Shown here piece by piece: positions 3,749 to 16,199 of a DNA stretch of 41,718 bases (the first letter of the stretch is position 1; each line of letters starts with the position of its first letter). The notes under the pieces were generated by a model, which did not search any database, was not told where the DNA came from, and saw only the letters and a program-made list of their open reading frames with translations. Source of the stretch: Candidatus Solibacter usitatus (lineage in GTDB: Bacteria > Acidobacteriota > Terriglobia > Bryobacterales > Bryobacteraceae); contig JACPVQ010000110.1 of NCBI GenBank assembly GCA_016191645.1, positions 1 through 41,718 on the forward strand, given 5' to 3'. The translations under genes and the position numbers were made by a program.

Positions 3749-3957
3749 CTAACCTCGCCCCACCAGCGGCATCTTCGTCGCCATCACCGTCATGTAAAGG
3801 ATGTTCGCGTCCAACGGCAGGTTCGCCATGTGCACCACGGCATCGGCGACGTGCCGCACATTCATGAACGGTTCCACGGCGAGCGTTCCATTCGCCTGCG
3901 GGACGCCCGCGGTCATGCGGTCCGTCATCTCGGTCGCCGCCTTTGCCGATGTCGATC
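3749..3957 (-). pseudogene. Displaced 3'-end copy of the neighbouring SDR gene
   Basis: These 209 bp align with the last 208 bp of the intact SDR gene (4712-4919) with 13 mismatches and one inserted base that I count by eye, about 93% identity. The stop codon and C-terminal residues (TKMPLVGRG) are kept. Within the shared protein only about two internal residues differ, so most base changes are silent. Homology stops abruptly at 3957, followed by sequence unrelated to the SDR gene. The fragment has no start signal of its own and lacks the Rossmann core, so it cannot encode an active enzyme. It is one arm of a direct repeat around the higBA pair. Confidence 0.88.
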
Positions 3958-4711: not shown

Positions 4712-5467
4712 CTAACCCCGTCCCACCAGCGGCATCTTCGTCGCCATCACCGTCATGTAAAGAATGTTCGCGTCCAACGGCAGGTTCGCCATGTGCACCA
4801 CGGCATCGGCGACGTGTTGCACGTTCATGCGCGGTTCCACGGCGAGCGTTCCATTCGCCTGTGGGACGCCCGCCGTCATGCGGTCGGTCATCTCGGTCGC
4901 CGCGTTGCCGATATCGATCTGCCCACACGCAATATCGTGCGCGCGGCCATCGAGCGCGATGCACTTCGTCAATCCCGTGATCGCATGTTTCGTCGTCGTG
5001 TAGGGTGCGGAACCCGGCCGCGGCACCTGGGCTGAGATCGATCCGTTATTAATGATGCGCCCGCCGCGGGGGGTCTGCGCCTTCATCATGCGAATGGCCT
5101 CTTGTGCGCAGAGGAACGCGCCGGTCAGATTTACTCCGACCACCGTACTCCATTGCTCAAAGGTCAAATCCTCCATGGGAACCGAGGGCACGTTTGTGCC
5201 CGCATTATTGAACAGCACGTCGAGGCGGCCGAACTGTTCGCGGATGGCCGCGAACAACGCCTTCACCGCCTCGGGTTGGCTGATATCCGCGGGCACGGCG
5301 ATCATCCTGCCGCCTTGCGGCGATGCCTGCGATGCGGTCTTCTCCAATTCCGCGGCGCGGCGTCCCGCCAGCGCGACGTTGTACCCAGCCGACTGAAGCG
5401 CTAAGGCCGCCGCGCGTCCAATGCCGCTTCCAGCGCCTGTGACCAGTGCATACTTTTGTTGATTCAT
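4712..5467 (-). CDS. Short-chain dehydrogenase/reductase (SDR)
   Basis: 251 aa from the ATG at 5467, chosen because the Rossmann fold begins at once ([15 protein letters not shown]), a CAGGAT ribosome-binding site precedes it, and longer readings run into the divergent gene. Classical SDR motifs are TGAGSGIG for NAD(P), NNAG, a serine in NNGSISA, and the catalytic pair in YTTTK. The enzyme is a cytosolic NAD(P)-dependent oxidoreductase; its substrate is unknown. The last 208 bp are duplicated at 3749-3957. The part just before the repeat ([20 protein letters not shown]) keeps the usual SDR context, so the full-length copy looks functional. Its start is only 27 bp from the divergent TonB-receptor gene. 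Confidence 0.9.
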
Positions 5468-5494
5468 ATCCTGCTGTACCATGAAACCATAGCT

Positions 5495-8400
5495 ATGAGA
5501 CTCGCAGCCATTCTTCTGTTCACCTCCTGCCTCGGCGCGCAAACGGTAACAGGCACGCTCGACGGCCACATCAAAGATTCCACCGGCGGTCTGATCGCCA
5601 ACGCGAAGGTCACTGCCCGCAACAACGATAACGGCCTCACGCGCACGGCCGCCACCGGATCCACGGGTTACTTTCAGATGACGTTTCTTCCCGTGGGAGA
5701 CTATTCCGTGACCGCGGAATCGAGCGGTTTCACCACCGTGCGGCGCGCCGCCGTGGTCGAGCTCAACGCTACCCGCTCTGTCGATTTCGAACTCAAGCCG
5801 GCGGGCGTGGCAACCGAAGTCACCGTGACGGAAGAGATTCCCTTGATCGAAGTTTCACGCGGCGACGTGAAAAACAACATCGAGCAACAAGTGATTGAGG
5901 ATCGTCCCCTCTCTTCCCGCAACATCCTTTCGCTTGTCGAAATGCTTCCCGGTTTCCAATCGAGCGGAAGCTACAGCGGCATCAACAACCCAACCCTCTC
6001 CTCCGGCAGTTACGTTTCTTTTAGCGGCACCGGATCGCGCTCGGCCACTTTCCAAATCGATGGCGTCAACAACGACGACAGCAGCGAGGGAAGCAGCCGC
6101 CAGAACGTGAACGTCAGCGCGATCAAGGAATTTCAGGTGCTCACCAACTCCTACGCGGCCGAATTCGGACGCGCCGGCGGCGCGGTGGTTCTTGTGCAAA
6201 CCAAGTCCGGAACCAATCGCTTCCACGGTGATGCCTATGAATTTCTGCAAAATGAAAAACTGAACGCCAACTCGTTCTACGGCAATGCATCCGGCCGAAG
6301 GCCCGACGGAACGGAGATTTCGCCGCGCGCGCCTTACCGCCGCAATCAGTTCGGATACACTGCCGGCGGACCGATCCGCAAAAACAAACTATTCTTTTTT
6401 CACAGCCTTGAGCAAACACGGCTGATTCAATACAACACGTTCACGCGCTGGATTTTTCTGCCTACCGACAAGTTGCAGGTGGGCGATTGCCGCCTCTGCC
6501 TGAATCCGGCGGAACACCCGAATGTCGAATCCGACCGCCGCTTTTTGCAAAGCATTCTCGATCGTTTCCCTCGCGAAGCGCCGAACAATCCCAATCTCTG
6601 CGATCACTGCTTCACCGCAACCCGTCACGCCAACTACCCCGATCAGGATTACAGCGGCAAGCTCGATTGGAATCCAGGCCAACGCGATGCTTTTGTGGTT
6701 CGCTACCAGTATTCCCGCCAGAAGCGGTTCCCGTTGCCTTTAATTCAAGGCGAGACAGCGTATCAAAATAATCGCCAGCAGAATGTCGGCGCGACGCACA
6801 CGCACATGTTCTCGGCCTCTACGTGGGGCGAATTCCGCTTCGGCCTGGGCCTGCGCACCACGCTGGTCGATATCTCTTCGGGAAACGATACGCCCATCGT
6901 CCGTATCTCCAACGCATCCGCCTACACGACGACAACCATGGGCAGCGCCGGACAGTTTCCCATCAACCGTTACCAGACGGATTATCAATTCGTGTACAAC
7001 CTCTCCCACATTCGCGGACGCCACATTGTACGCGCGGGAATTGATTTCCGCCGTCAGCACCTCAACGATCTGGCCGACAACTATTCGCGCGGCTGGTGGA
7101 CGTTCGGGCAGGTTGGGGTGCGCGGCCAGCCAACCTTCTACGAAGGTTGGGAGAATTTCCTTCGCGGTTACTACACAACCTTCGAAAAGGGCTATGGCAA
7201 TTTCACCACGTTCAACCGGCTCGGCGAGTTCAACCAGTACGTGATGGACGACATTCGCATCACGCCAACACTTACGCTCAATGTCGGCTTCCGCTGGGAA
7301 GTAGTATTGAAGCCCAGCGAGGCGAAGGGCAAGGTGCAATATCTTTTCGATACGTTCAAGGACGGCTACGAACCGCGATTCGGATTCGCATGGTCGCCCG
7401 GCGCGCACCGTAGCTCCCGGTGGGGCAAGATCACGGGAGGCCCGGGCCGCCTCAGCGTGCGCGGCGGATACGGCATCTTCCACAATCGCATCTTCCAAAG
7501 CGTCTTCTCGCAGGGAGGCGCGAGCTTGCGTTCTCAGCCGCCTTACGGAATCTATTCCGGCTTTGGCGCGGGTTTCGAAACCGCCGATCCCACCAAGGGC
7601 TTTCTGTACACGCCCGGCTACGATCCGGGACGCATTTCGGTCGGTCAAGTCGATCCGGGCTTGCGCATGCCCTCCATCCAACAGTTGCATTTCACCATCG
7701 ACCGCCAACTGCCCGGCAGAATCGCATTGAGCATCGGGTACAACCGCACGCGCGGAATCGGCCTTCTGGCCAATCAGAATACCAATCGCGCGCGATTCCC
7801 CTTCCTCTCTCCGGTGGACGGCATTCTTTATGACAAGATCGAAACCGATCTTGGCACCACCGCCCCACGGCCGGGCTACATTTCAATCGCGCAGCCGCGT
7901 TACAATCAGCGCCGCCCCGATACGCGGTACGGCACGGTCGTCTACATTCACAACGGATCCTGGAGCTACTACAACGCGCTCCGCCTGTCCATCAATAAGC
8001 GATATTCGGCGGGCCTGCATTGGGCCGTGGCATACACGTTAGGCAAAACAGTCGATACAGGTTCGGACGTCACCGCCGGCGTCACGATCAGCGAATTCGG
8101 GGCTGCCATCAACAATCGCGGACTGAGCGATTTCGATCAACGGCAGCGATTGAATCTGAACTACGGATATCAACTGCCGTTCTTCAAGACGCAGCGCGGA
8201 GTGCGCGCCGCGGCGTTGAAGGGTTGGACGCTCACCGGCAACATGACGCTGGCGTCGGCGAATCCGTTCACCGTGAGTTCCGGCATCGATTTCAATTCCG
8301 ACGGCGTCGTCAACGATCGTCCCCTGATTTTGAAACCGCAGTATTTCGGCGCAACCGTCGACGACGGCCGCCGCAACGCGAACGGTGTAATCGTCTCAAC

Positions 8401-8764: not shown

Positions 8765-8800
8765 GCGCGCACATCTGGAGATCTGCTTAGGCTGCGAAGA

Positions 8801-8868
8801 TTTTCTTTGGTTGCGGCTGTGCTGCTCTGTACTACTAGTTTTCTTTGGTTACGGCTGTGCCGCTCTGT
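8801..8868. repeat. 30-bp direct repeat, two units
   Basis: Units at 8801-8830 and 8839-8868 start with TTTTCTTTGG and end with GCTCTGT; they differ at two positions. The second unit abuts the palindromic repeat element. There is no coding potential that I recognise. Confidence 0.85.
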
Positions 8869-9052
8869 GGGGCAGATCTCCAGATCTGCGAGGCGGTCTC
8901 CAGACCGCCTCTGCCGGAAGTATTTGTACTCTCCGAAGCGGCTGCATGGCAGCCGATGGCCTCCAGCGAGGCCATGCGGGATCTGGAGATCCCGCCGCAG
9001 ATCTGGAGATCTGCCCCACCGAGCTTGGGAAGATTTCAAAGACTAGTAGTAC
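8829..9052. repeat. Outer inverted repeat enclosing the palindromic element
   Basis: GTACTACTAGT at 8829-8839 is the exact reverse complement of ACTAGTAGTAC at 9042-9052. The pair frames the nested-palindrome element at 8867-9019 and could be the ends of a small non-autonomous element. It is not present around the second copy at 16067-16199. No target-site duplication was found. Confidence 0.5.
8867..9019. repeat. Nested-palindrome intergenic repeat, copy 1
   Basis: The 153-bp element has perfect 24-bp terminal inverted repeats (8867-8890 and 8996-9019, starting GTGGGGCAGATC). Inside are four further stem-loops: AGGCGGTCT/AGACCGCCT (8891-8910), CGGCTGC-atg-GCAGCCG (8939-8955), ATGGCCTC-cagc-GAGGCCAT (8956-8975) and GGGATCT-gg-AGATCCC (8978-8993). 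The dodecamer RTCTCCAGAY recurs in several of these. It fills the gap between two convergent genes, where it may act as a bidirectional terminator or mRNA stabiliser; that role is inference. The 295 bp between genes here hold nothing else but the repeats described. Confidence 0.9.
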
Positions 9053-9059
9053 ATCGGAA

Positions 9060-11261
9060 TTAGCGCAAGAACGCTTCGGAGAGTCCCGCGTCCACGGGGA
9101 TCACGTTCCCCGTCGTGCGCGCGCTGCGGTCTCCCGCCAGCCACACAATTGCCTCGGCGCAATGCTCCGGCAGGATTGGCTCTTTTAGCAGTGTGCGCTT
9201 GGCATAGAATTCCGCAAGCCGCTGTCGCAAGGCCTCTGTCGTCTCGTGCTCATCGAAAGCAATCTTGTACTTCGCCAGCGACGAAATCACGCGGTCTCGC
9301 GGAAACATTGTCGACCCCGCAACCACAGTTGCCGGAGCAATTCCGTTTACGCGCACCAGGGGCGCCATGCCCATGGCCAACTCGCCGATTAGATGATTGA
9401 CGGCGCTCTTGCTGACGTCGTACGCCTCGCTGCCCTTCTTCGGAACCACGGCGTTCGCGGAGCTTGTGAACACCATCGATACGGTCAGATCCTGCGGATC
9501 GAAAACCTTTTCCGCCTCCTTCGCCAGGAAGTAGTTGCCGGTCACGTTCACATCGAGAGTAACGTGCCACGCATTTTCGTCGAGATGACCGAACGCATCC
9601 GGCGGGATAAAGACGGCAGCCGTGTTAATGACGGAATCCAATCCGCCGTACTGCATCACCGTCAATTCTATGGCCTGAGCAATCGACTCGCGCTTGCGCA
9701 GGTCCAGCCCGCAGGCCGCGACCGCTTCGCGATCATGTTTGGCCGCGCAGAGATCGGCGGTGTCCCGCGCGGATTGTTCGTTGAGATCGGCGATCATGAG
9801 GTGAGCGCCGGCTGCCGCCAGTTTCAACGCAGTGGCACGGCCAACACCCGCGCCGCCACCCACCACCAGCACGATCTTGCGGCTGAACTCCGCTTCCGGC
9901 GGCATGCGCCGCAGCTTCGCCTCTTCCAATTGCCAGTACTCGATGCGGAACGCTTCGCGCCGCGGCAGTGAAACGTAATTCTTAAAGCTCACGAAATCGC
10001 CTGCGCGCGCGGCGTCCTTGGCATGTGGCAGAACGCCCTGATCCACAGCGCCGTTAGCCATACCCGTCGCGCCGGACATCACGCGGATCGCATTGCGGTA
10101 GAACTCACCCGTAATGCGCGCTTCTTTTTTTGAGCGCCCGAACGAAACCATGCCCACGCCGGGAATCAGCACAACCGTTGGATTCTGGTCGCGCAGCGCC
10201 GGCGATCCTTCTTCCTTGTTGTTTTCGTAATAATTCGCGTAGTCGTTGCGATACCGCTCCAACCCCGCGTCCAGAGCCTTGTCGAAGGAATCGAGGTTCC
10301 CTGCCGCCGGATCCCAATCCACCAGCAGCGGCGAGATGCGCGTGCGCAGGAAGTGATCGGGACAACTTGTGCCCAGCGATGCCAGCGTGGCCGCGTCGGC
10401 GGAATTGATAAAAACGAGAGCCTCTTCGGCTCCATCGAAGTGTCCAATCGAGCGGCGGCTCTGTCCCACTTTGCCGCGCAGCAAGGGAAGCATTTTCGGA
10501 GCGAGCACGCGGGCATCGGATCTGGTTGCGTATTTCAACCCGCCAAATAATTCCTTCCCTTCCGCATGTCCTAAGACGAACTGGCCGAGCTGATCAATGA
10601 TGGTAACGCTGTTGATGTACGATTCGCGCTGCGTCGCGCCCCACGTGAAGAGCCCATGGCTTCCCAGTACAATGCCGTCGCAGCCGGGATTATCCGCAAC
10701 CGCTCGCCGCAACATCAGCCCCAGTTCAAAGCCGGGACGCTGCCACGGCAACCAAACCAGCTTATGTCCGAACCGTTTGTTGAACTCTTCCATCTTCGTC
10801 TTGCCGTTGCGGCTGGCCGCAAGTGCGATGCCCCAATCGGGATGGAGATGATCGACGTGATCGAAAGGCAGGTAGCCATGCAGCGGCGTATCGATGGAGG
10901 CGGCGACCGTGTTGCCGGAAAAGGAACACGATGGATACAATCCCACCATGTCGTCTTCGAAATTCTCGCCGCGATAGACTTTTTCCAACGCCAGTAGACG
11001 GTCCAGATAGAGTACTGCGAAGCCCGTCGTCTTGATGGATCCAAGATCGCCCCCGCTGCCTTTGACGGCCATCACCCGAACGGGTTTCCCGCTCAGCGGG
11101 TCGGTCACTTCGTATTTGGAACTGGTGTTGCCGCCGCCGAAATTGGTAATACGCAGATCCGCGCCGAGAAGATTAGAACGATATCGAAGCAGGTCCAGAT
11201 GGTCGCCGTCCAAGGAGGCGGCATGCTCATCTTTCCACAGGTCTTGTAAGTAAGTATGCAT
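9060..11261 (-). CDS. rhaEW: Bifunctional rhamnulose-1-phosphate aldolase / lactaldehyde dehydrogenase-type SDR fusion
   Basis: 733 aa. The N-terminal part (about 1-420) is a class II aldolase domain with N-terminal phosphate-binding patterns (ITNFGGGNTSSKYE) and zinc-ligand histidines (FDHVDHLHPDW, H138 and H140; later SHGLFTWG). The C-terminal part (about 460-733) is an SDR with GGGAGVGR at 468-475, NTAAV, and YDVSK (Y614, K618). Fusions of this type cleave L-rhamnulose-1-phosphate to DHAP and L-lactaldehyde and oxidise or reduce the aldehyde; the symbol follows the name used for such fusions, and the exact sugar is not proven. The ATG at 11261 has GGA 8 nt upstream. No other rhamnose gene (isomerase, kinase) is in the window. 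Confidence 0.85.
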   Translation of the reverse strand: MHTYLQDLWKDEHAASLDGDHLDLLRYRSNLLGADLRITNFGGGNTSSKYEVTDPLSGKPVRVMAVKGSGGDLGSIKTTGFAVLYLDRLLALEKVYRGENFEDDMVGLYPSCSFSGNTVAASIDTPLHGYLPFDHVDHLHPDWGIALAASRNGKTKMEEFNKRFGHKLVWLPWQRPGFELGLMLRRAVADNPGCDGIVLGSHGLFTWGATQRESYINSVTIIDQLGQFVLGHAEGKELFGGLKYATRSDARVLAPKMLPLLRGKVGQSRRSIGHFDGAEEALVFINSADAATLASLGTSCPDHFLRTRISPLLVDWDPAAGNLDSFDKALDAGLERYRNDYANYYENNKEEGSPALRDQNPTVVLIPGVGMVSFGRSKKEARITGEFYRNAIRVMSGATGMANGAVDQGVLPHAKDAARAGDFVSFKNYVSLPRREAFRIEYWQLEEAKLRRMPPEAEFSRKIVLVVGGGAGVGRATALKLAAAGAHLMIADLNEQSARDTADLCAAKHDREAVAACGLDLRKRESIAQAIELTVMQYGGLDSVINTAAVFIPPDAFGHLDENAWHVTLDVNVTGNYFLAKEAEKVFDPQDLTVSMVFTSSANAVVPKKGSEAYDVSKSAVNHLIGELAMGMAPLVRVNGIAPATVVAGSTMFPRDRVISSLAKYKIAFDEHETTEALRQRLAEFYAKRTLLKEPILPEHCAEAIVWLAGDRSARTTGNVIPVDAGLSEAFLR

Positions 11262-11325
11262 TATAGTTCCATTTTACGCTGTCGGCGCGATGCCTCGTGG
11301 CAATGGAACTGGACGGATTCCCGGA

Positions 11326-11574
11326 TCACATCCGCACACCCACGAATTTCCCGGCGTGCATCTTGATAGGCCCAATCTTCGGGCTCTGGGCTAGCTCCTG
11401 AAAGGTCTGTTGAGCGGCGAGAAGAAAGCGTATTGCCAAATCTCTGCCAGCCTCTTCGGCCAACCATACCAAGTGACGAGTCAAGTCCCTTTTTGCGGCG
11501 ATTCGCTGATGACTCGCGGCATCGACTTCAGGTTGGCCTACGGGAATTAACGATTCCCATTCCCTCGCGTTCAA
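11326..11574 (-). pseudogene. Truncated ParE/RelE-type toxin
   Basis: The frame reads ...AAKRDLTRHLVWLAEEAGRDLAIRFLLAAQQTFQELAQSPKIG...GKFVGVRM and stops. This is the helical hairpin and first strands of ParE-like toxins. The family normally continues for about 25-30 residues after the VRM strand with a beta-sheet block (pattern PGFxxYLIFY) needed for the fold; here nothing like it follows in any frame up to the next gene. The only available start is TTG at 11574 inside the antitoxin frame, or an unidentified later one. I infer a C-terminally truncated, inactive toxin. Confidence 0.6.
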
Positions 11575-11686
11575 TGTCCTCCCAATCCTGGGCAGTCATT
11601 TCAGTGTAGTCACCGCTCTGTTCCGCTTCTTGTATCAGCAGTTCCAGGTGCCGCTCTTCAAGCTCAGGAGAAATAGTTAGTGTCAT
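11528..11686 (-). CDS. Small ParD-like antitoxin
   Basis: 52 aa, starting MTLTISPELEERHLELL, the beta-strand/helix opening of ParD/CopG-type antitoxins, and continuing through an acidic helix (TAQDWEDIEREG). The ATG (11684-11686) begins one base after the stop of the upstream Gfo/Idh gene, so it is translated as part of that operon. Its 3' end overlaps the toxin remnant by about 47 bp, a usual antitoxin-toxin arrangement. It is short for the family (70-90 aa) and may itself be shortened. Function as an antitoxin is inference from pattern and position. Confidence 0.6.
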   Translation of the reverse strand: MTLTISPELEERHLELLIQEAEQSGDYTEMTAQDWEDIEREGMGIVNSRRPT

Positions 11687-11687
11687 T

Positions 11688-12806
11688 TTACGCCTTCGAC
11701 ACCTTATCCCAAGTTGCTTCTTTGCCCGTGTAGATCGCCTCGCGCCCGAGAATGGCGATGAGCGTGCTTTCGGCGGCGTGGAACGCGGCGTTTTCCAGCT
11801 TGCCGTTGCGGCATCCGTCGATGAATTGATTCACGGAATCCTGCGTGATGTCGTGCTTTGTTTCGATGCGCTGCTCCTTACCATCGGCGCGCATGATGGA
11901 AACTCCCCTGCGCGAAGTATTGATCCAACCCTTTTCGCAGATGAATGTTTCGGAGATGTCCTGATAAGTCTGGCGGCCGAATTGGTGCGCACTGTAGCTG
12001 AACACGACGCCGCTGTCGTAAACATACGTCACGGAAAGATTGTCCAACACATCGCCGATAGTTCGCATGGCGCGTCCACCGTAACCCGTTGCCTTGCTGG
12101 GATGCCCGCCCATAAACCAGTTGACGACGTCCAGGTTGTGGCAATCCTGCTCCACGATGATGTCGCCGGACGTTTCGCGGTAGAAGTACCAGTTGCGGAT
12201 CTTCTCTTCGCTCTGCGGATGGCCGCTGCGCGTCGGCGGCGGGCCGCCCAGCCACGCCGCCCGAATCATCTTCACCGCTCCCAGTTCGCCTGATTTCAGC
12301 ACGCCGTAAGCGGTTTGATAATCCTTGCCGTAGCGCTGCTGATAGTCGACGGTAATGCGCTTCGTCTTGTCGGCCTTCTTCGCCGCTTCGACAATGCGGC
12401 GGCAACCCTTGGCATCGACGCCGGCGGGTTTCTCCATGAAGATGTGTTTGCGCGCCTGCACGGCGGCTTCGAAATGTTCGGGGTGCAGAAACGCCGGCGT
12501 CGCAATGAGCACCGCGTCAACGTTGCTGCTCAGTACGTCTTTGTAATTCTTGTATTCCTTCGCGCCGGAATACTTCTCCCGCGCCGCCGCCAGCTTGTCG
12601 TCATAGATGTCGCAAATGACGGCGATGCGCGCGAATTCATTTTTCGCGGCGATGCCGCTGTCGTGCATCCCGCGTCCGCCACAGCCAATCAGTCCGATGG
12701 TGAGCGCGGAGTTCGCCTGCGAACCCCTCACCTGATGCGGCTTGACAATCAGGAATGCCGCACCGGCCGCCGCGGCGCTGGCATCGCGTCTGGAAATAGT
12801 TGTCAT
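11688..12806 (-). CDS. Gfo/Idh/MocA-family oxidoreductase with Tat signal
   Basis: 372 aa. The N-terminus (MTTISRRDASAAAAGAAFLIV) is a twin-arginine signal, so the folded, cofactor-loaded protein is probably exported. The NAD(P)-binding fold starts at ALTIGLIGCGGRGMHD, and the catalytic lysine is in the family motif EKP (HIFMEKPAGVD). The C-terminal half has EQDCHNLDVVNWFMGGHP, common in sugar dehydrogenases of this group. Some Tat-exported relatives (GH109) are NAD-dependent glycosidases, so dehydrogenase versus glycosidase is open. It is divergent from the glycosyltransferase gene across 26 bp holding a symmetric -10 palindrome. It probably heads the operon with the ParD-like gene and the aldolase fusion. 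Confidence 0.88.
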   Translation of the reverse strand: MTTISRRDASAAAAGAAFLIVKPHQVRGSQANSALTIGLIGCGGRGMHDSGIAAKNEFARIAVICDIYDDKLAAAREKYSGAKEYKNYKDVLSSNVDAVLIATPAFLHPEHFEAAVQARKHIFMEKPAGVDAKGCRRIVEAAKKADKTKRITVDYQQRYGKDYQTAYGVLKSGELGAVKMIRAAWLGGPPPTRSGHPQSEEKIRNWYFYRETSGDIIVEQDCHNLDVVNWFMGGHPSKATGYGGRAMRTIGDVLDNLSVTYVYDSGVVFSYSAHQFGRQTYQDISETFICEKGWINTSRRGVSIMRADGKEQRIETKHDITQDSVNQFIDGCRNGKLENAAFHAAESTLIAILGREAIYTGKEATWDKVSKA

Positions 12807-12812
12807 ACGTCA

Positions 12813-12824
12813 ACAGTATACTGT
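12813..12824. promoter_or_regulatory. Palindromic bidirectional -10 element
   Basis: ACAGTATACTGT is a perfect 12-bp palindrome in a 26-bp divergent gap. It gives TATACT on both strands: plus 12817-12822, 10 nt before the ATG at 12833; minus 12820-12815, 8 nt before the ATG at 12806. No good -35 is visible on either side. It could equally be a repressor site. Confidence 0.45.
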
Positions 12825-12832
12825 GAGATTAC

Positions 12833-14242
12833 ATGCTCCTTTCCATTCTGGTTCCTGTGTATAACGAACGGTCGGTTGTCGAGCGCAGTTTGGGGCTGGT
12901 TCTGGCCGCTCCGCTGCCTGAACATATGGAGCGGGAATTGATCGTCGTGGACGATTGCTCCACCGACGGCACCTTCGCAATTCTGCAGCGCCTTGCCGCG
13001 GCGGAGCCGCGCATTCGACTCTACCGTCACGAAGTGAATCGCGGCAAAGGAGCGGCTGTGCGCAGCGCGATTCAATATGCGCAAGGCGATTTCGTCGTCG
13101 TGCAGGATGCCGATCTCGAATACGATCCCAATGAGTATCCGCGTCTGCTGCGTCCTTTGCTGGATGGCCGCGCGGATGCCGTATTCGGGTCGCGCTACCT
13201 GGCCGGGGAACAAACCCGCGTGCTGCCGTTCTGGCATTCGATGATCAACAAACATCTGACTTTGTTGTCGAACATTTTTTCCAACATCAAGCTCACGGAC
13301 ATGGAGACCTGCTACAAGGTCTTCCGTACAGATCTGCTGAAGAGCATTCCCATCCGCTCGGACCGCTTCGGCTTCGAACCGGAAATCACCATGAAGAGCG
13401 CCAAGCGGAAGCTGCGTATTTACGAGGTGCCGATCAGCTATCACGGGCGAACTTATGAAGAGGGCAAGAAGATCGGATGGAAGGATGGTCTGAAGGCGCT
13501 GGGCGTGATTCTGCGCTTCTGGCTGGAGGATGACCTCTACGTGCAGCCATATGGAAGGGCGTTTCTCAACAATCTCAGCGGAACGCCCGCGCACCTGAGC
13601 TGGATCACGGAGACCATTCGGCCGTATCTTGGCGAAGTAGTTCTGGAACTGAGCGCCGGCATCGGCAACTTTGCCGGACGCCTGCTTGCGCGGCGGCAAT
13701 TGTATGTCGCGGCGGAATCGGATCCATTCTATCTGCACGCATTGGAGAATCGCTTTCTGCGCACCCCGAACGTTCGCATGGTGAAACTGGATCCGAATCA
13801 GCCGTCGTCCTATGCGCAATTCGATCATCGCTTCGATACCGTCCTTTGCCTCAACGTACTGGAGAATATGGATTCGCCGGAGACGGCCGTCGCGGAATCG
13901 GCGAAGTTGTTGGAACCCGGCGGGAGACTTGTCGTGCTGGTGCCGCATGGCAGGGAACTGTTCAGCCGCCTGGATGAAACACGCGGGCACAAGCGCCGTT
14001 TCTCGCGTGACGAAATCGAAGCGATGATGCGCAAAAACGGATTTCACATCGAACGCGCGCACAAGATTGCCAAACTAGGCGCAGTCGCGTGGTGGTTCTT
14101 CGGCAAGATCCTGCGGCGCAAGGAAATCGGCAAACTGTGGTTGAAACTCTTTGACAAAACGGTCTGGATTACGCGCCGCCTGAATTTCCTCGCGCCCTGG
14201 GGAGGCATGGACCTCATCGTTGTGGGCCGGACAAGCAAGTAA
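12833..14242 (+). CDS. Family 2 glycosyltransferase fused to a SAM-dependent methyltransferase
   Basis: 469 aa. Residues 1-235 are a GT-A family 2 glycosyltransferase of the dolichol/polyprenyl-phosphate mannose synthase type: ILVPVYNERSVV, IVVDDCSTDGT, the DxD motif at D92-A-D94, and the acceptor region TDMETCYKVFR. The C-terminal part (about 265-450) is a class I methyltransferase: VLELSAGIGNFAGRLL (motif I), FDTVLCLNVLENM, and LLEPGGRLVVLVP. Single proteins with both domains occur widely; they probably transfer a sugar to a lipid carrier and methylate a linked product, but the order and substrate are unknown. No membrane segments are evident. There is no ribosome-binding site; a -10 hexamer is 10 nt upstream. 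Confidence 0.9.
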   Translation: MLLSILVPVYNERSVVERSLGLVLAAPLPEHMERELIVVDDCSTDGTFAILQRLAAAEPRIRLYRHEVNRGKGAAVRSAIQYAQGDFVVVQDADLEYDPNEYPRLLRPLLDGRADAVFGSRYLAGEQTRVLPFWHSMINKHLTLLSNIFSNIKLTDMETCYKVFRTDLLKSIPIRSDRFGFEPEITMKSAKRKLRIYEVPISYHGRTYEEGKKIGWKDGLKALGVILRFWLEDDLYVQPYGRAFLNNLSGTPAHLSWITETIRPYLGEVVLELSAGIGNFAGRLLARRQLYVAAESDPFYLHALENRFLRTPNVRMVKLDPNQPSSYAQFDHRFDTVLCLNVLENMDSPETAVAESAKLLEPGGRLVVLVPHGRELFSRLDETRGHKRRFSRDEIEAMMRKNGFHIERAHKIAKLGAVAWWFFGKILRRKEIGKLWLKLFDKTVWITRRLNFLAPWGGMDLIVVGRTSK

Positions 14243-14285
14243 AGGATTGTCTGCGGACTGTCGATAAATAGCTAAACTAAGGCAA

Positions 14286-15122
14286 ATGAAGGAACTGAGG
14301 CAGGCAATCTGCAACGAGGCGTTCCAGGGATGGGACTTCGCCGGATCATGCCGGTTCATGAAGAAGACCGGCTACAGCGGAATCGAAATCGCGCCGTTCA
14401 CTTTATTGGAAGACCCCGCTGCCATTCCGGTCCAGCGCCGCGCGGAACTGCGCGACATCATGGCCTCAGAGGGTTTGGAATTTGTCGGATTGCATTGGCT
14501 GATGGTGTCGCCGAAAGGATTGCACGTGACGACGCCGGACAACGCCCTGCGGGAGAAGAGCTGGTTGCACATACGCAACCTCGTCGATCTGTGCGCCGAT
14601 CTCGGCCCGGATGGCGTGATGGTGTTTGGCTCGCCGCAACAGCGTGGGACGGTGGGCGGATCGTCACGCGCCGAAGCCACGGGACGGTATGTCGACGGAT
14701 TGTCGGAAGTGGCTCCACACGCGGCGGCGCGCGGCGTGACGATTCTAGTTGAGGCGCTGCCGGTGGCACAGTGCGACGTCGTGCAGACGTTGGAAGAAGC
14801 GGTTGGAATTGTGCGGCAGATTGATAGCCCGGGAGTCCGCACGATGTTCGACACGCACAATGCGATTGATGAGCGCGAACCGCACGCCGTTCTCGTGGAC
14901 CGTTATTACGACTACATCCGCCACGTTCACGTGAATGAACTGGACGGCAAGCATTGCGGCGTTGGAGATTATGATTTCAAGCCGCTGCTGCAAATGTTAT
15001 TGCGGCGCGGATACCGGCGGTGGGTGTCGCTGGAAGCTTTCGACTTTTCATTTGGCGCGGAGCGGATTGCCACGGAATCGCTGCGGCATCTGGAGGCGGA
15101 GATAAAGAGGATTGCATCATGA
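14286..15122 (+). CDS. Sugar phosphate isomerase/epimerase (xylose-isomerase-like TIM barrel)
   Basis: 278 aa. AP-endonuclease-2/xylose-isomerase-like barrel. The expected metal ligands are present: E156 (ILVEALP), D189 and H191 (MFDTHN), H215 (HVHVNELD) and E250 (SLEAFDF). It has no signal peptide, so it is cytosolic. AAGG lies about 8 nt before the ATG. The stop overlaps the start of the epimerase gene (ATGA at 15119-15122), so the two are translated together. Members of this family isomerise or epimerise ketoses, inosose or hydroxypyruvate-type substrates; the present substrate is unknown. Pairing with a nucleotide-sugar epimerase and a glycosyltransferase points to sugar interconversion for glycan synthesis, which is inference. 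Confidence 0.88.
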   Translation: MKELRQAICNEAFQGWDFAGSCRFMKKTGYSGIEIAPFTLLEDPAAIPVQRRAELRDIMASEGLEFVGLHWLMVSPKGLHVTTPDNALREKSWLHIRNLVDLCADLGPDGVMVFGSPQQRGTVGGSSRAEATGRYVDGLSEVAPHAAARGVTILVEALPVAQCDVVQTLEEAVGIVRQIDSPGVRTMFDTHNAIDEREPHAVLVDRYYDYIRHVHVNELDGKHCGVGDYDFKPLLQMLLRRGYRRWVSLEAFDFSFGAERIATESLRHLEAEIKRIAS

Positions 15123-16066
15123 AGAAGATCGTCGTTACAGGCGGAGCGGGTTTCATTGGATCGAATCTCGTGCGATCTCTGTTGGAACAGCGCGAAGGAA
15201 AAGTTATCGTCATCGACAACCTCTTCTCCGGCAAGGAAGAGAACCTCGCCGAAGTTCGGAATGAGATTGGCTTCGAACGCATGGACGTGCGGGATCTGAA
15301 TGCAATCCTGCCTGTCATCGACGGCGCGGACACCGTGTATCATTTGGCTGCGATTCCGTCCGTCCCGCGCTCCATTGAAGATCCGGTGCCGTCCCATGAC
15401 ACCAATTTGAACGGCTGTTTCAACGTATTCCACGCGGCCGTGCAAGGGAAGGTGCGCCGTCTCATCTACGCTGCGTCGTCCTCCGCTTATGGCGACACCG
15501 AGGTGCTGCCGAAAGTGGAGACCATGATTCCGCGTCCGAAGTCACCCTACGCCGCGCAGAAAGTGATGGGCGAATACTACGCGCGATGTTTCTATGAATG
15601 CTATGGCCTTGAGGCCGTGGCGCTGAGGTTCTTCAACGTTTACGGTCCACGGCAGGATCCAACCAGCGCGTATTCAGGCGTGCTTTCGTTGTTCATCACG
15701 GCTCTAATCGACGGCAAGAACCCCACGATCCTCGGCGATGGCGAACAATCGCGCGATTTCACCTATGTAAAGGATGTTGCCGGACTGTGTATCAAAGCGG
15801 CTCACGCCGGGAAGCACGTTGCCGGCATCACCTACAACGCGGGTAATGGGAATCGCCACACGCTGAACAAAGTTTGGTCGCTCCTGCAAAAGATTGAAGG
15901 CATCGAACTGCCTGCGAAGTACGGCCCGCCGCGCTCCGGCGATGTGCTGCATTCGCAGGCCGACACGACTCTCGCAATCCGCGATTTAGGCCATGATCCC
16001 AAGTATTCGTTGGAAGAAGGTTTGCGGCTCACGCTCGAATGGTATCGCCAGGATCGCGCCGCTTGA
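15119..16066 (+). CDS. NAD-dependent nucleotide-sugar epimerase (extended SDR)
   Basis: 315 aa from the ATG at 15119. The Rossmann motif is VTGGAGFIGSN; the catalytic tyrosine and lysine are in YAAQK, with the serine in SSSAYG. Further family motifs are HLAAIPSVPRSIEDP and FFNVYGPRQDP, with GDGEQSRDFTYVKDV near the substrate pocket. The SVPRSIEDP version is typical of UDP-N-acetylhexosamine 4-epimerases (WbpP type) rather than simple GalE, but specificity is not certain. Cytosolic; probably supplies sugar nucleotides to surface polysaccharide synthesis together with the upstream glycosyltransferase. The stop codon is followed immediately by the palindromic repeat at 16067. Confidence 0.9.
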   Translation: MKKIVVTGGAGFIGSNLVRSLLEQREGKVIVIDNLFSGKEENLAEVRNEIGFERMDVRDLNAILPVIDGADTVYHLAAIPSVPRSIEDPVPSHDTNLNGCFNVFHAAVQGKVRRLIYAASSSAYGDTEVLPKVETMIPRPKSPYAAQKVMGEYYARCFYECYGLEAVALRFFNVYGPRQDPTSAYSGVLSLFITALIDGKNPTILGDGEQSRDFTYVKDVAGLCIKAAHAGKHVAGITYNAGNGNRHTLNKVWSLLQKIEGIELPAKYGPPRSGDVLHSQADTTLAIRDLGHDPKYSLEEGLRLTLEWYRQDRAA

Positions 16067-16199
16067 GTGGGGCAGATCTCCAGATCCCGCATGGCCTCGC
16101 AAGAGGCCATCGGCTGCTTTGCAGCCGCCCGGGAGATTGCGATTACTTCAGGCAGAGACGGTCTGGAGACCGGCTCGCAGATCTGGAGATCTGCCCCAC
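16067..16199. repeat. Nested-palindrome intergenic repeat, copy 2 (inverted relative to copy 1)
   Basis: 133-bp element with perfect 20-bp terminal inverted repeats (16067-16086 and 16180-16199). Internal stems are ATGGCCTC-gcaa-GAGGCCAT (16091-16110), CGGCTGC-ttt-GCAGCCG (16111-16127) and CGGTCT-gg-AGACCG (16159-16172). Compared with the reverse complement of copy 1, the stems are kept in the same order while the loops differ. It begins on the base after the epimerase stop codon and ends 8 bp before the stop of the convergent ROK gene. Confidence 0.9.

What the first reader, a model, noticed from the sequence alone, without database searches (positions are those of the whole stretch)
8867..16199. 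Interspersed nested-palindrome repeat whose stems are conserved and loops are not
Seen: copies at 8867-9019 and 16067-16199 are reverse complements in layout, each with perfect terminal inverted repeats of 24 or 20 bp and three or four inner stem-loops in the same order. Loops differ (cagc/gcaa, atg/ttt) and the RTCTCCAGAY core varies in paired positions, as if structure is selected. Both copies fill the space between convergent genes; one starts on the base after a stop codon. This resembles REP/BIME or MITE families, but I do not recognise it as a described one. Terminator, mRNA-stability or transposase-target roles are inference.
Basis: partly seen in the sequence, partly recalled or inferred. 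Interest (0 to 1): 0.75.

Follow-up and report, generated by a model that had tools for sequence, protein, structure and literature searches.

The report
Twin-hairpin REP elements with their transposase
These repeats look like gene-less copies of a small jumping element whose enzyme gene sits inside one full-length copy elsewhere in the same soil-bacterium genome; the kind (REP/REPIN) is known, but its double-hairpin ends are an unusual variant.

Summary
Confirmed and largely explained. Both copies belong to a family with 426 terminal repeats in the 4.47-Mb draft genome, against 0 for the reversed pattern. The element (mode 153 nt) is two inverted GTGG-tagged REPs around a structured spacer, i.e. 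a REPIN. Another copy (C250:18704-18866) keeps the RAYT leader, ATG and about 10 nt of ORF, as an internal-deletion derivative would. Six local hairpins covary; the 23-bp whole-element stem does so less well. Loops of the two middle hairpins drift, but the four REP-type loops are almost invariant. Of 62 assignable loci 29 are convergent, 30 tandem, 3 divergent. No target duplications, few T-tails. What looks new: related RAYTs form a supported clade whose ends carry two adjacent hairpins with similar cores. Not tested: actual movement, RNA function, cleavage.

The parts
8867..9019 (+). Copy 1: complete 153-nt element (REPIN-type head-to-head REP dimer), in the orientation of the RAYT-carrying copy
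8867..8889 (+). Left REP: GTGG tag and hairpin 1 (8872-8889), loop TCCA
   Evidence: alignment A1 columns 1-23
8890..8911 (+). Hairpin 2, untagged, loop TCCA, same polarity as hairpin 1
   Evidence: A1 columns 24-45
8912..8938 (+). Variable linker; the place where the C62 copy holds the RAYT gene
8939..8975 (+). Hairpins 3 (8939-8955) and 4 (8956-8975); stems kept, loops free
8976..8995 (+). Hairpin 5, loop TGGA (TCCA on the - strand)
8997..9019 (-). Right REP on the - strand: GTGG tag and hairpin 6 (8997-9014)
16067..16199 (-). Copy 2: 133-nt element on the - strand; 20 nt missing so that hairpins 5 and 6 are fused; abuts TGA 16064-16066
8809..8866 (+). Outer module: one GGTTGCGGCTGTGCTGCTCT core (8809-8828), GTACTACTA (8829-8837) and a second, degenerate core (8847-8866) that abuts the left tag
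9020..9052 (-). Partial outer module on the right, inverted (GTACTACTA at 9044-9052)

Best explanation
The repeats are a REPIN-type non-autonomous mobile element: two inverted GTGG-tagged REPs, each followed by a second hairpin of the same polarity, around a spacer. They were spread by a cognate RAYT, a Y1/HUH tyrosine transposase that acts on single-stranded DNA, whose gene lies inside one full-length copy of the same element. SHOWN by sequence: family size, the RAYT-in-element copy with both complete ends, one short copy that keeps the RAYT start region, covarying hairpins with fixed tag and REP-type loops, no target duplication, position mostly behind genes. INFERRED: the RAYT binds the TCCA hairpins and nicks near the tag; short copies arose by internal deletion of RAYT-carrying elements and were then amplified in trans; placement behind genes reflects survival where insertion does little harm.
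For: RAYT ORF between complete ends of this element at C62; NCBIfam REP-associated tyrosine transposase 83.2 bits, cut-off 80; HUH and Tyr among the invariant columns of 32 relatives; model of a 60%-identical relative matches 4er8, a RAYT bound to a REP hairpin, first (TM 0.53-0.57). RAYT leader and start kept in the C250 copy: score 41, at most 30 in 5000 shuffles, next best of 69 other dimers 25. 426 ends, control 0. Local hairpins 99.2% paired, 11 of 46 pairs changed on both sides, 0 of 500 shuffles; REP-type loops nearly invariant. No 3-10 nt duplication in 66 elements. Outward-tagged hairpins on both sides of 40 of 88 related RAYTs, shuffled control 0.
Against: No movement seen: no empty site could be read in congeners. 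The RAYT element is a single copy in a 79%-complete draft, so the parent itself shows no sign of recent spread. Linkers of the other dimers keep no convincing RAYT sequence; deletion is shown for one copy. G074 has 31 sites with a related core but no RAYT hit at E<=1e-20. Flanking dinucleotides before the tag (CC 5, CA 4 of 133; T last in 89 of 133) do not favour the CC or CA cleavage that GTGG-tagged substrates of one other RAYT gave in vitro (PMC8266576, passages). TM-scores are modest.
Confidence: 0.87

Rival explanations
1. Selected RNA elements at transcript 3' ends: the hairpins protect mRNA or end transcription in both directions, and any mobility is only their origin.
For: Copies lie mostly behind genes: 29 convergent and 30 tandem of 62; median 41 nt to a stop codon. 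Covarying stems.
Against: Placement of this sort is reported for REPs in general (PMC3733652 section 15) and also follows from avoiding promoters and genes. No terminator-like site at the window copies; T-tails at 8 of 132 ends, shuffled mean 4.1, maximum 9. Fixed TCCA loops and GTGG tag are not needed for a terminator.
Confidence: 0.15
2. Pairing is kept by mutation, not selection: hairpin-templated correction copies one arm onto the other, so palindromes stay perfect after spreading.
For: Hairpins 3 and 4, whose loops drift, pair as well as the others (98.8% and 99.3% of cells).
Against: Does not explain fixed loops in four hairpins, the fixed tag, or hairpin 1 and 2 cores that resemble each other within an end across RAYT lineages.
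Confidence: 0.2
3. The RAYT gene entered a pre-existing short element, or its ends were overwritten by gene conversion from short copies, so that the short element is the ancestor.
For: Only one copy carries the gene; linkers of the other dimers keep no convincing RAYT sequence.
Against: The C250 copy carries the RAYT start; in other genera related RAYTs sit between comparable twin-hairpin ends.
Confidence: 0.2
4. DDE-type MITEs with terminal inverted repeats.
For: Long terminal inverted repeats and short length.
Against: No target duplication of 3-10 nt in 66 elements; the gene between the same ends is a Y1/HUH enzyme.
Confidence: 0.02

Closest known systems
REPINs (REP doublets forming hairpins), Bertels and Rainey 2011, PMC3116915 (passages seen)
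   Same: Inverted REP doublets with a spacer that can fold, intergenic, tied to a RAYT; compensatory changes reported there too.
   Different: Two hairpins per end; spacer hairpins and ends are shared with a RAYT-carrying copy; one copy keeps RAYT coding sequence. In that paper descent from REPs flanking an IS200-like element is offered as a possibility.
RAYT/REP units (REPtrons), Nunvar 2010, PMC2817692 (passages); Quentin 2018, PMC6006769 (abstract, section 12, passages)
   Same: RAYT gene between two inverted GT(A/G)G-tagged palindromes.
   Different: A second untagged hairpin next to each tagged one, with a similar core; [quoted passage not shown]
GTAG superfamily REPs, TIRYTs and TIRtrons, Di Nocera 2013, PMC3733652 (abstract, sections 5, 14, 15, 16, passages)
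   Same: Tag, short loops, head-to-head dimers, placement behind genes; TIRYTs with terminal inverted repeats are named from Acidobacteria.
   Different: What I read does not describe this family. The legend of Figure 9 mentions double palindromic TIRs; the figure was not available and may be a precedent for twin ends.
RAYTs that recognise perfect palindromes (group 3), Corneloup 2021, PMC8266576 (abstract, section 29, passages)
   Same: Perfect palindrome with loop positions that matter.
   Different: Tested there on single hairpins; tag here is GTGG with two hairpins.

Membership tests
REP (GTAG superfamily) | GT(A/G)G tag beside a GC-rich palindrome with short loop | tested here: met
   GTGG + GCAGATC-TCCA-GATCTGC; tag and hairpin conserved in 37 aligned copies
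REP (GTAG superfamily) | High copy number in one genome | tested here: met
   426 sites, control 0
REP (GTAG superfamily) | Mostly extragenic, behind or between genes | tested here: met
   62 of 73 classifiable loci intergenic, 59 of those 62 convergent or tandem; 11 overlap a predicted ORF
REPIN | REPs mainly as inverted doublets | tested here: met
   140 of 169 ends in fetched DNA form 70 head-to-head dimers; 29 single, some cut by contig ends
REPIN | Doublet is the unit that moves (excision or insertion seen) | not testable with these tools
   no reads or strains; no empty site found
RAYT / REPtron | Y1 transposase with HUH motif and tyrosine, scored as RAYT | tested here: met
   PF01797, NF047646 above cut-off, invariant H104, H106, Y163 in 32 sequences
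RAYT / REPtron | Gene flanked by two inverted REPs of the genome's family | tested here: met
   C62 copy
RAYT / REPtron | Enzyme binds and cleaves its REP as single strand | not testable with these tools
   needs biochemistry
DDE-type MITE | Target-site duplication | tested here: not met
   0 of 66 elements for 3-10 nt; 2 nt at chance (4 against 3.2)
Intrinsic terminator | T-tract after the stem | tested here: not met
   0 at the window copies; 8 of 132 ends against 4.1 in shuffles, maximum 9
Rfam families | Match at the gathering score | tested here: not met
   0 matches in the window

The most novel reading that the evidence does not exclude
A clade of RAYTs, sampled mostly in Bryobacteraceae and other Acidobacteriota, uses two adjacent, same-polarity hairpins per end with matched loop cores, perhaps as a pair of binding sites. 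Its elements behave as real autonomous/non-autonomous pairs: here REPINs are caught arising by internal deletion of RAYT-carrying elements, which would answer where REPINs come from in at least one lineage.
Probability: 0.4. Interest if true: 0.65.

Novelty: new variant of a known kind. Interest (0 to 1): 0.47.

Why it matters
The paper that named REPINs lists their evolution as an unknown and offers descent from REPs flanking an IS200-like element as one possibility (PMC3116915, passages). A genome with a RAYT-carrying copy, a copy with only the RAYT start left and many short copies with the same hairpins makes that route testable. Twin-hairpin ends whose cores differ between RAYT lineages give a natural series for studying how these single-strand enzymes read hairpins.

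Tried and rejected
Rfam: no match in the window. Intrinsic terminators: none at the copies. Empty sites in congeners: the gene beside copy 2 was found in 9 of 11 and that beside copy 1 in 10 of 11 congeners, but within the fetched flanks (up to 1500 nt, some cut by contig ends) the gene on the other side of the element was not seen next to it; one locus, L227, shows a 30%-identical TonB-receptor relative, not the neighbour in question. RAYT sequence in linkers of the first dimers (up to 69; those under 15 nt skipped): best score 21 against a shuffled maximum of 20, not convincing; the C250 copy came to light only. The CCCCTGG-type REP of related RAYTs in 12 chosen genomes: 9 have it, at most 11 sites, so little amplification there. 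The genome's second RAYT (C167) has its own core GCTTCAGC with 13 sites and does not explain this family. Literature searches showed no paper on this family or on twin-hairpin REP ends as a clade feature; the Di Nocera figure on double palindromic TIRs was not available.

Full report
What is there. The window copies are real, with perfect terminal inverted repeats of 24 and 20 bp. The window is contig C115 of an unnamed 4.47-Mb draft (267 contigs, 79% complete). Genomes of the same family include records titled Candidatus Sulfopaludibacter and Bryobacterales (same contigs), so the host is most likely a Bryobacteraceae acidobacterium (inference). The end pattern GTGGGGCAGRTCTCCAGAYCTGC with up to 3 mismatches gives 211 + 215 sites, control 0 + 0. 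An exact two-ended pattern finds 46 copies.

Anatomy. In 294,939 nt of fetched own-genome DNA (6.6% of the draft) there are 169 ends with up to 4 substitutions; 140 form 70 head-to-head dimers, 29 of them exactly 153 nt, and 29 ends are single, several cut by contig ends. These places came from the best BLAST copies and the first 100 places listed, not from all 426 sites. The 153-nt plan is tag, hairpin 1, hairpin 2, variable linker, hairpins 3, 4, 5, 6, inverted tag. Hairpins 1, 2, 5 and 6 share the core TCTCCAGA, each with TCCA on the strand where the nearest tag lies 5' of it.

Covariation. Alignment A1 holds 37 of the 70 dimers: those of 149-155 nt with the common plan; one rearranged 153-nt copy and the other lengths were left out. 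Six local hairpins: 99.2% of cells paired, 11 of 46 pairs with a change on both sides, 43 such cells, 0 of 500 shuffles as high; slid versions 29-41% paired. The copies are related, so cells are not independent events. With the 23-bp outer stem in place of hairpins 1 and 6, that helix is 97.1% paired and pair 10-147 is broken in 5 of 37, whereas the local pairs 10-19 and 138-147 are never broken. The outer stem also beats its shuffles, so both readings pair; the local one fits better. Loop entropy is 0.02 bits for the four REP-type loops and 0.95 for hairpins 3 and 4.

The transposase. PF01797 finds two genes in the genome. At C62 (L040) the RAYT ORF 81-650 is enclosed by hairpins 1 and 2 upstream and hairpins 3 to 6 downstream: the short element with a gene in its linker. 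Its left 55 nt equal those of the short copy at C69:6661 (read). It is a RAYT by NCBIfam, 83.2 bits against a cut-off of 80. The modelled relative L102, 60% identical (pLDDT 87.5), has 4er8, a RAYT bound to a REP hairpin, as first fold match (TM 0.53-0.57). The second RAYT, at C167, has a different core, GCTTCAGC, with 13 sites.

A deletion derivative. The 163-nt copy at C250:18704-18866 aligns with the RAYT copy through leader, ATG and about 10 nt of coding sequence (one base inserted), then passes to hairpin 3. The linker scores 41; 5000 shuffles reach 30 at most; the best of the other 69 dimers scores 25. I saw it by eye before testing. It supports descent of short copies from RAYT-carrying elements, directly for this one copy.

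Placement. Gene calls are from my own coding-potential script. Of 94 loci 62 could be assigned: 29 convergent, 30 tandem, 3 divergent. 20 ran off the DNA, 11 overlap a predicted ORF by more than 20 nt, 1 is the RAYT copy. Element-free neighbour pairs in the same DNA: 13 convergent, 103 tandem, 23 divergent of 139; of the 37 with gaps of 60 nt or more, 1, 17 and 19. Fisher p against the 139 is 8e-9 for convergent and 0.02 for divergent. Median distance to a stop codon is 41 nt (88 distances). This pattern is reported for REPs in general (PMC3733652 section 15).

Mechanism clues. No target duplication of 3-10 nt in 66 elements; T precedes the left tag in 44 of 66 and A follows the right tag in 43 of 66. 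T-tails at 8 of 132 ends, shuffled mean 4.1. Some copies are embedded in an outer module of about 66 nt that begins GTACTACTA, ends GGTTGCGGCTGTGCTGCTCT, abuts the tag and can be tandem: 23 of 133 ends have the adjacent core and 31 of 133 have GTACTACTA within 220 nt, controls 0 and 3. The genome has 102 core sites.

Relatives. The RAYT has hits in 49 of 121 family genomes at E<=1e-20, G000 included. The CTCCAG-type end with up to 1 mismatch has 338 sites in G000 and 1 to 47 in 19 other genomes, 101 having none; G074 has 31 sites but no RAYT hit. Among 40 nearest relatives only G001 gave BLAST matches to the element, weak ones. Of 88 distinct RAYT loci with enough flank, 40 have outward-tagged hairpins on both sides (shuffled control 0), and 24 on the left and 21 on the right have a second adjacent hairpin (left control 0). 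In a tree of 89 RAYTs one clade (support 99/91, 36 rows) holds 29 of the 30 twin-hairpin rows, 2 single and 5 without a tagged hairpin. The label needs 4 changes against 22.5 in shuffles, and well-supported branches force 3, so a single gain without loss is not shown. In 29 twins (the G000 element not counted) hairpins 1 and 2 share 4.31 of 6 central bases against 3.06 (maximum 3.79 of 1000) when permuted, not corrected for kinship; some lineages, such as L092, L097 and L098, have unlike cores.

Judgement. A member of the REP/REPIN-RAYT kind with a distinct end architecture and an unusually legible parent-derivative relation. Known for the kind: inverted REPs around RAYTs, compensatory stem changes, placement behind genes (PMC2817692 passages; PMC3116915 passages; PMC3733652 abstract, sections 5, 14, 15, 16 and passages; PMC6006769 abstract, section 12 and passages; PMC8266576 abstract, section 29 and passages; PMC12306157 passages). 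My searches showed neither this family nor twin-hairpin ends as a clade feature in print; one figure of PMC3733652 could not be seen and may be a precedent.

Noticed in passing
window 8809-8866 and 9020-9052; G000 C147:42199-42349, C150:4946-5097: Outer module of about 66 nt (GTACTACTA...GGTTGCGGCTGTGCTGCTCT), tandem in places, abutting the REP tag on either side of some elements; 102 core sites in the genome.
   Followed up: partly
window 8768-8786: Isolated REP-type core (ATCTGGAGATCTGC) without a tag, probably a degraded end.
   Followed up: no
window 3749-3943 and 4712-4906: 195-nt direct repeat, 94% identical; the second copy is the 3' part of a short-chain dehydrogenase gene (4712-5569, -), the first seems a truncated duplicate.
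   Followed up: no
L041, G000:C167: Second RAYT with a different low-copy REP family (core GCTTCAGC, 13 sites) and a complete small dimer just upstream.
   Followed up: partly
L198 (C50:1442), L216 (C100:6402), L217 (C100:30306), L209 (C82:3): Longer copies (187-198 nt) share an extra inner segment resembling GCACGGTCGAAAACCCACC, of untraced origin.
   Followed up: no
G000 contig ends, e.g. C87:1-23, C10:44789, C21:9596, C99:21337: Several contigs end inside a copy, so the family probably breaks the assembly and its copy number is underestimated.
   Followed up: no
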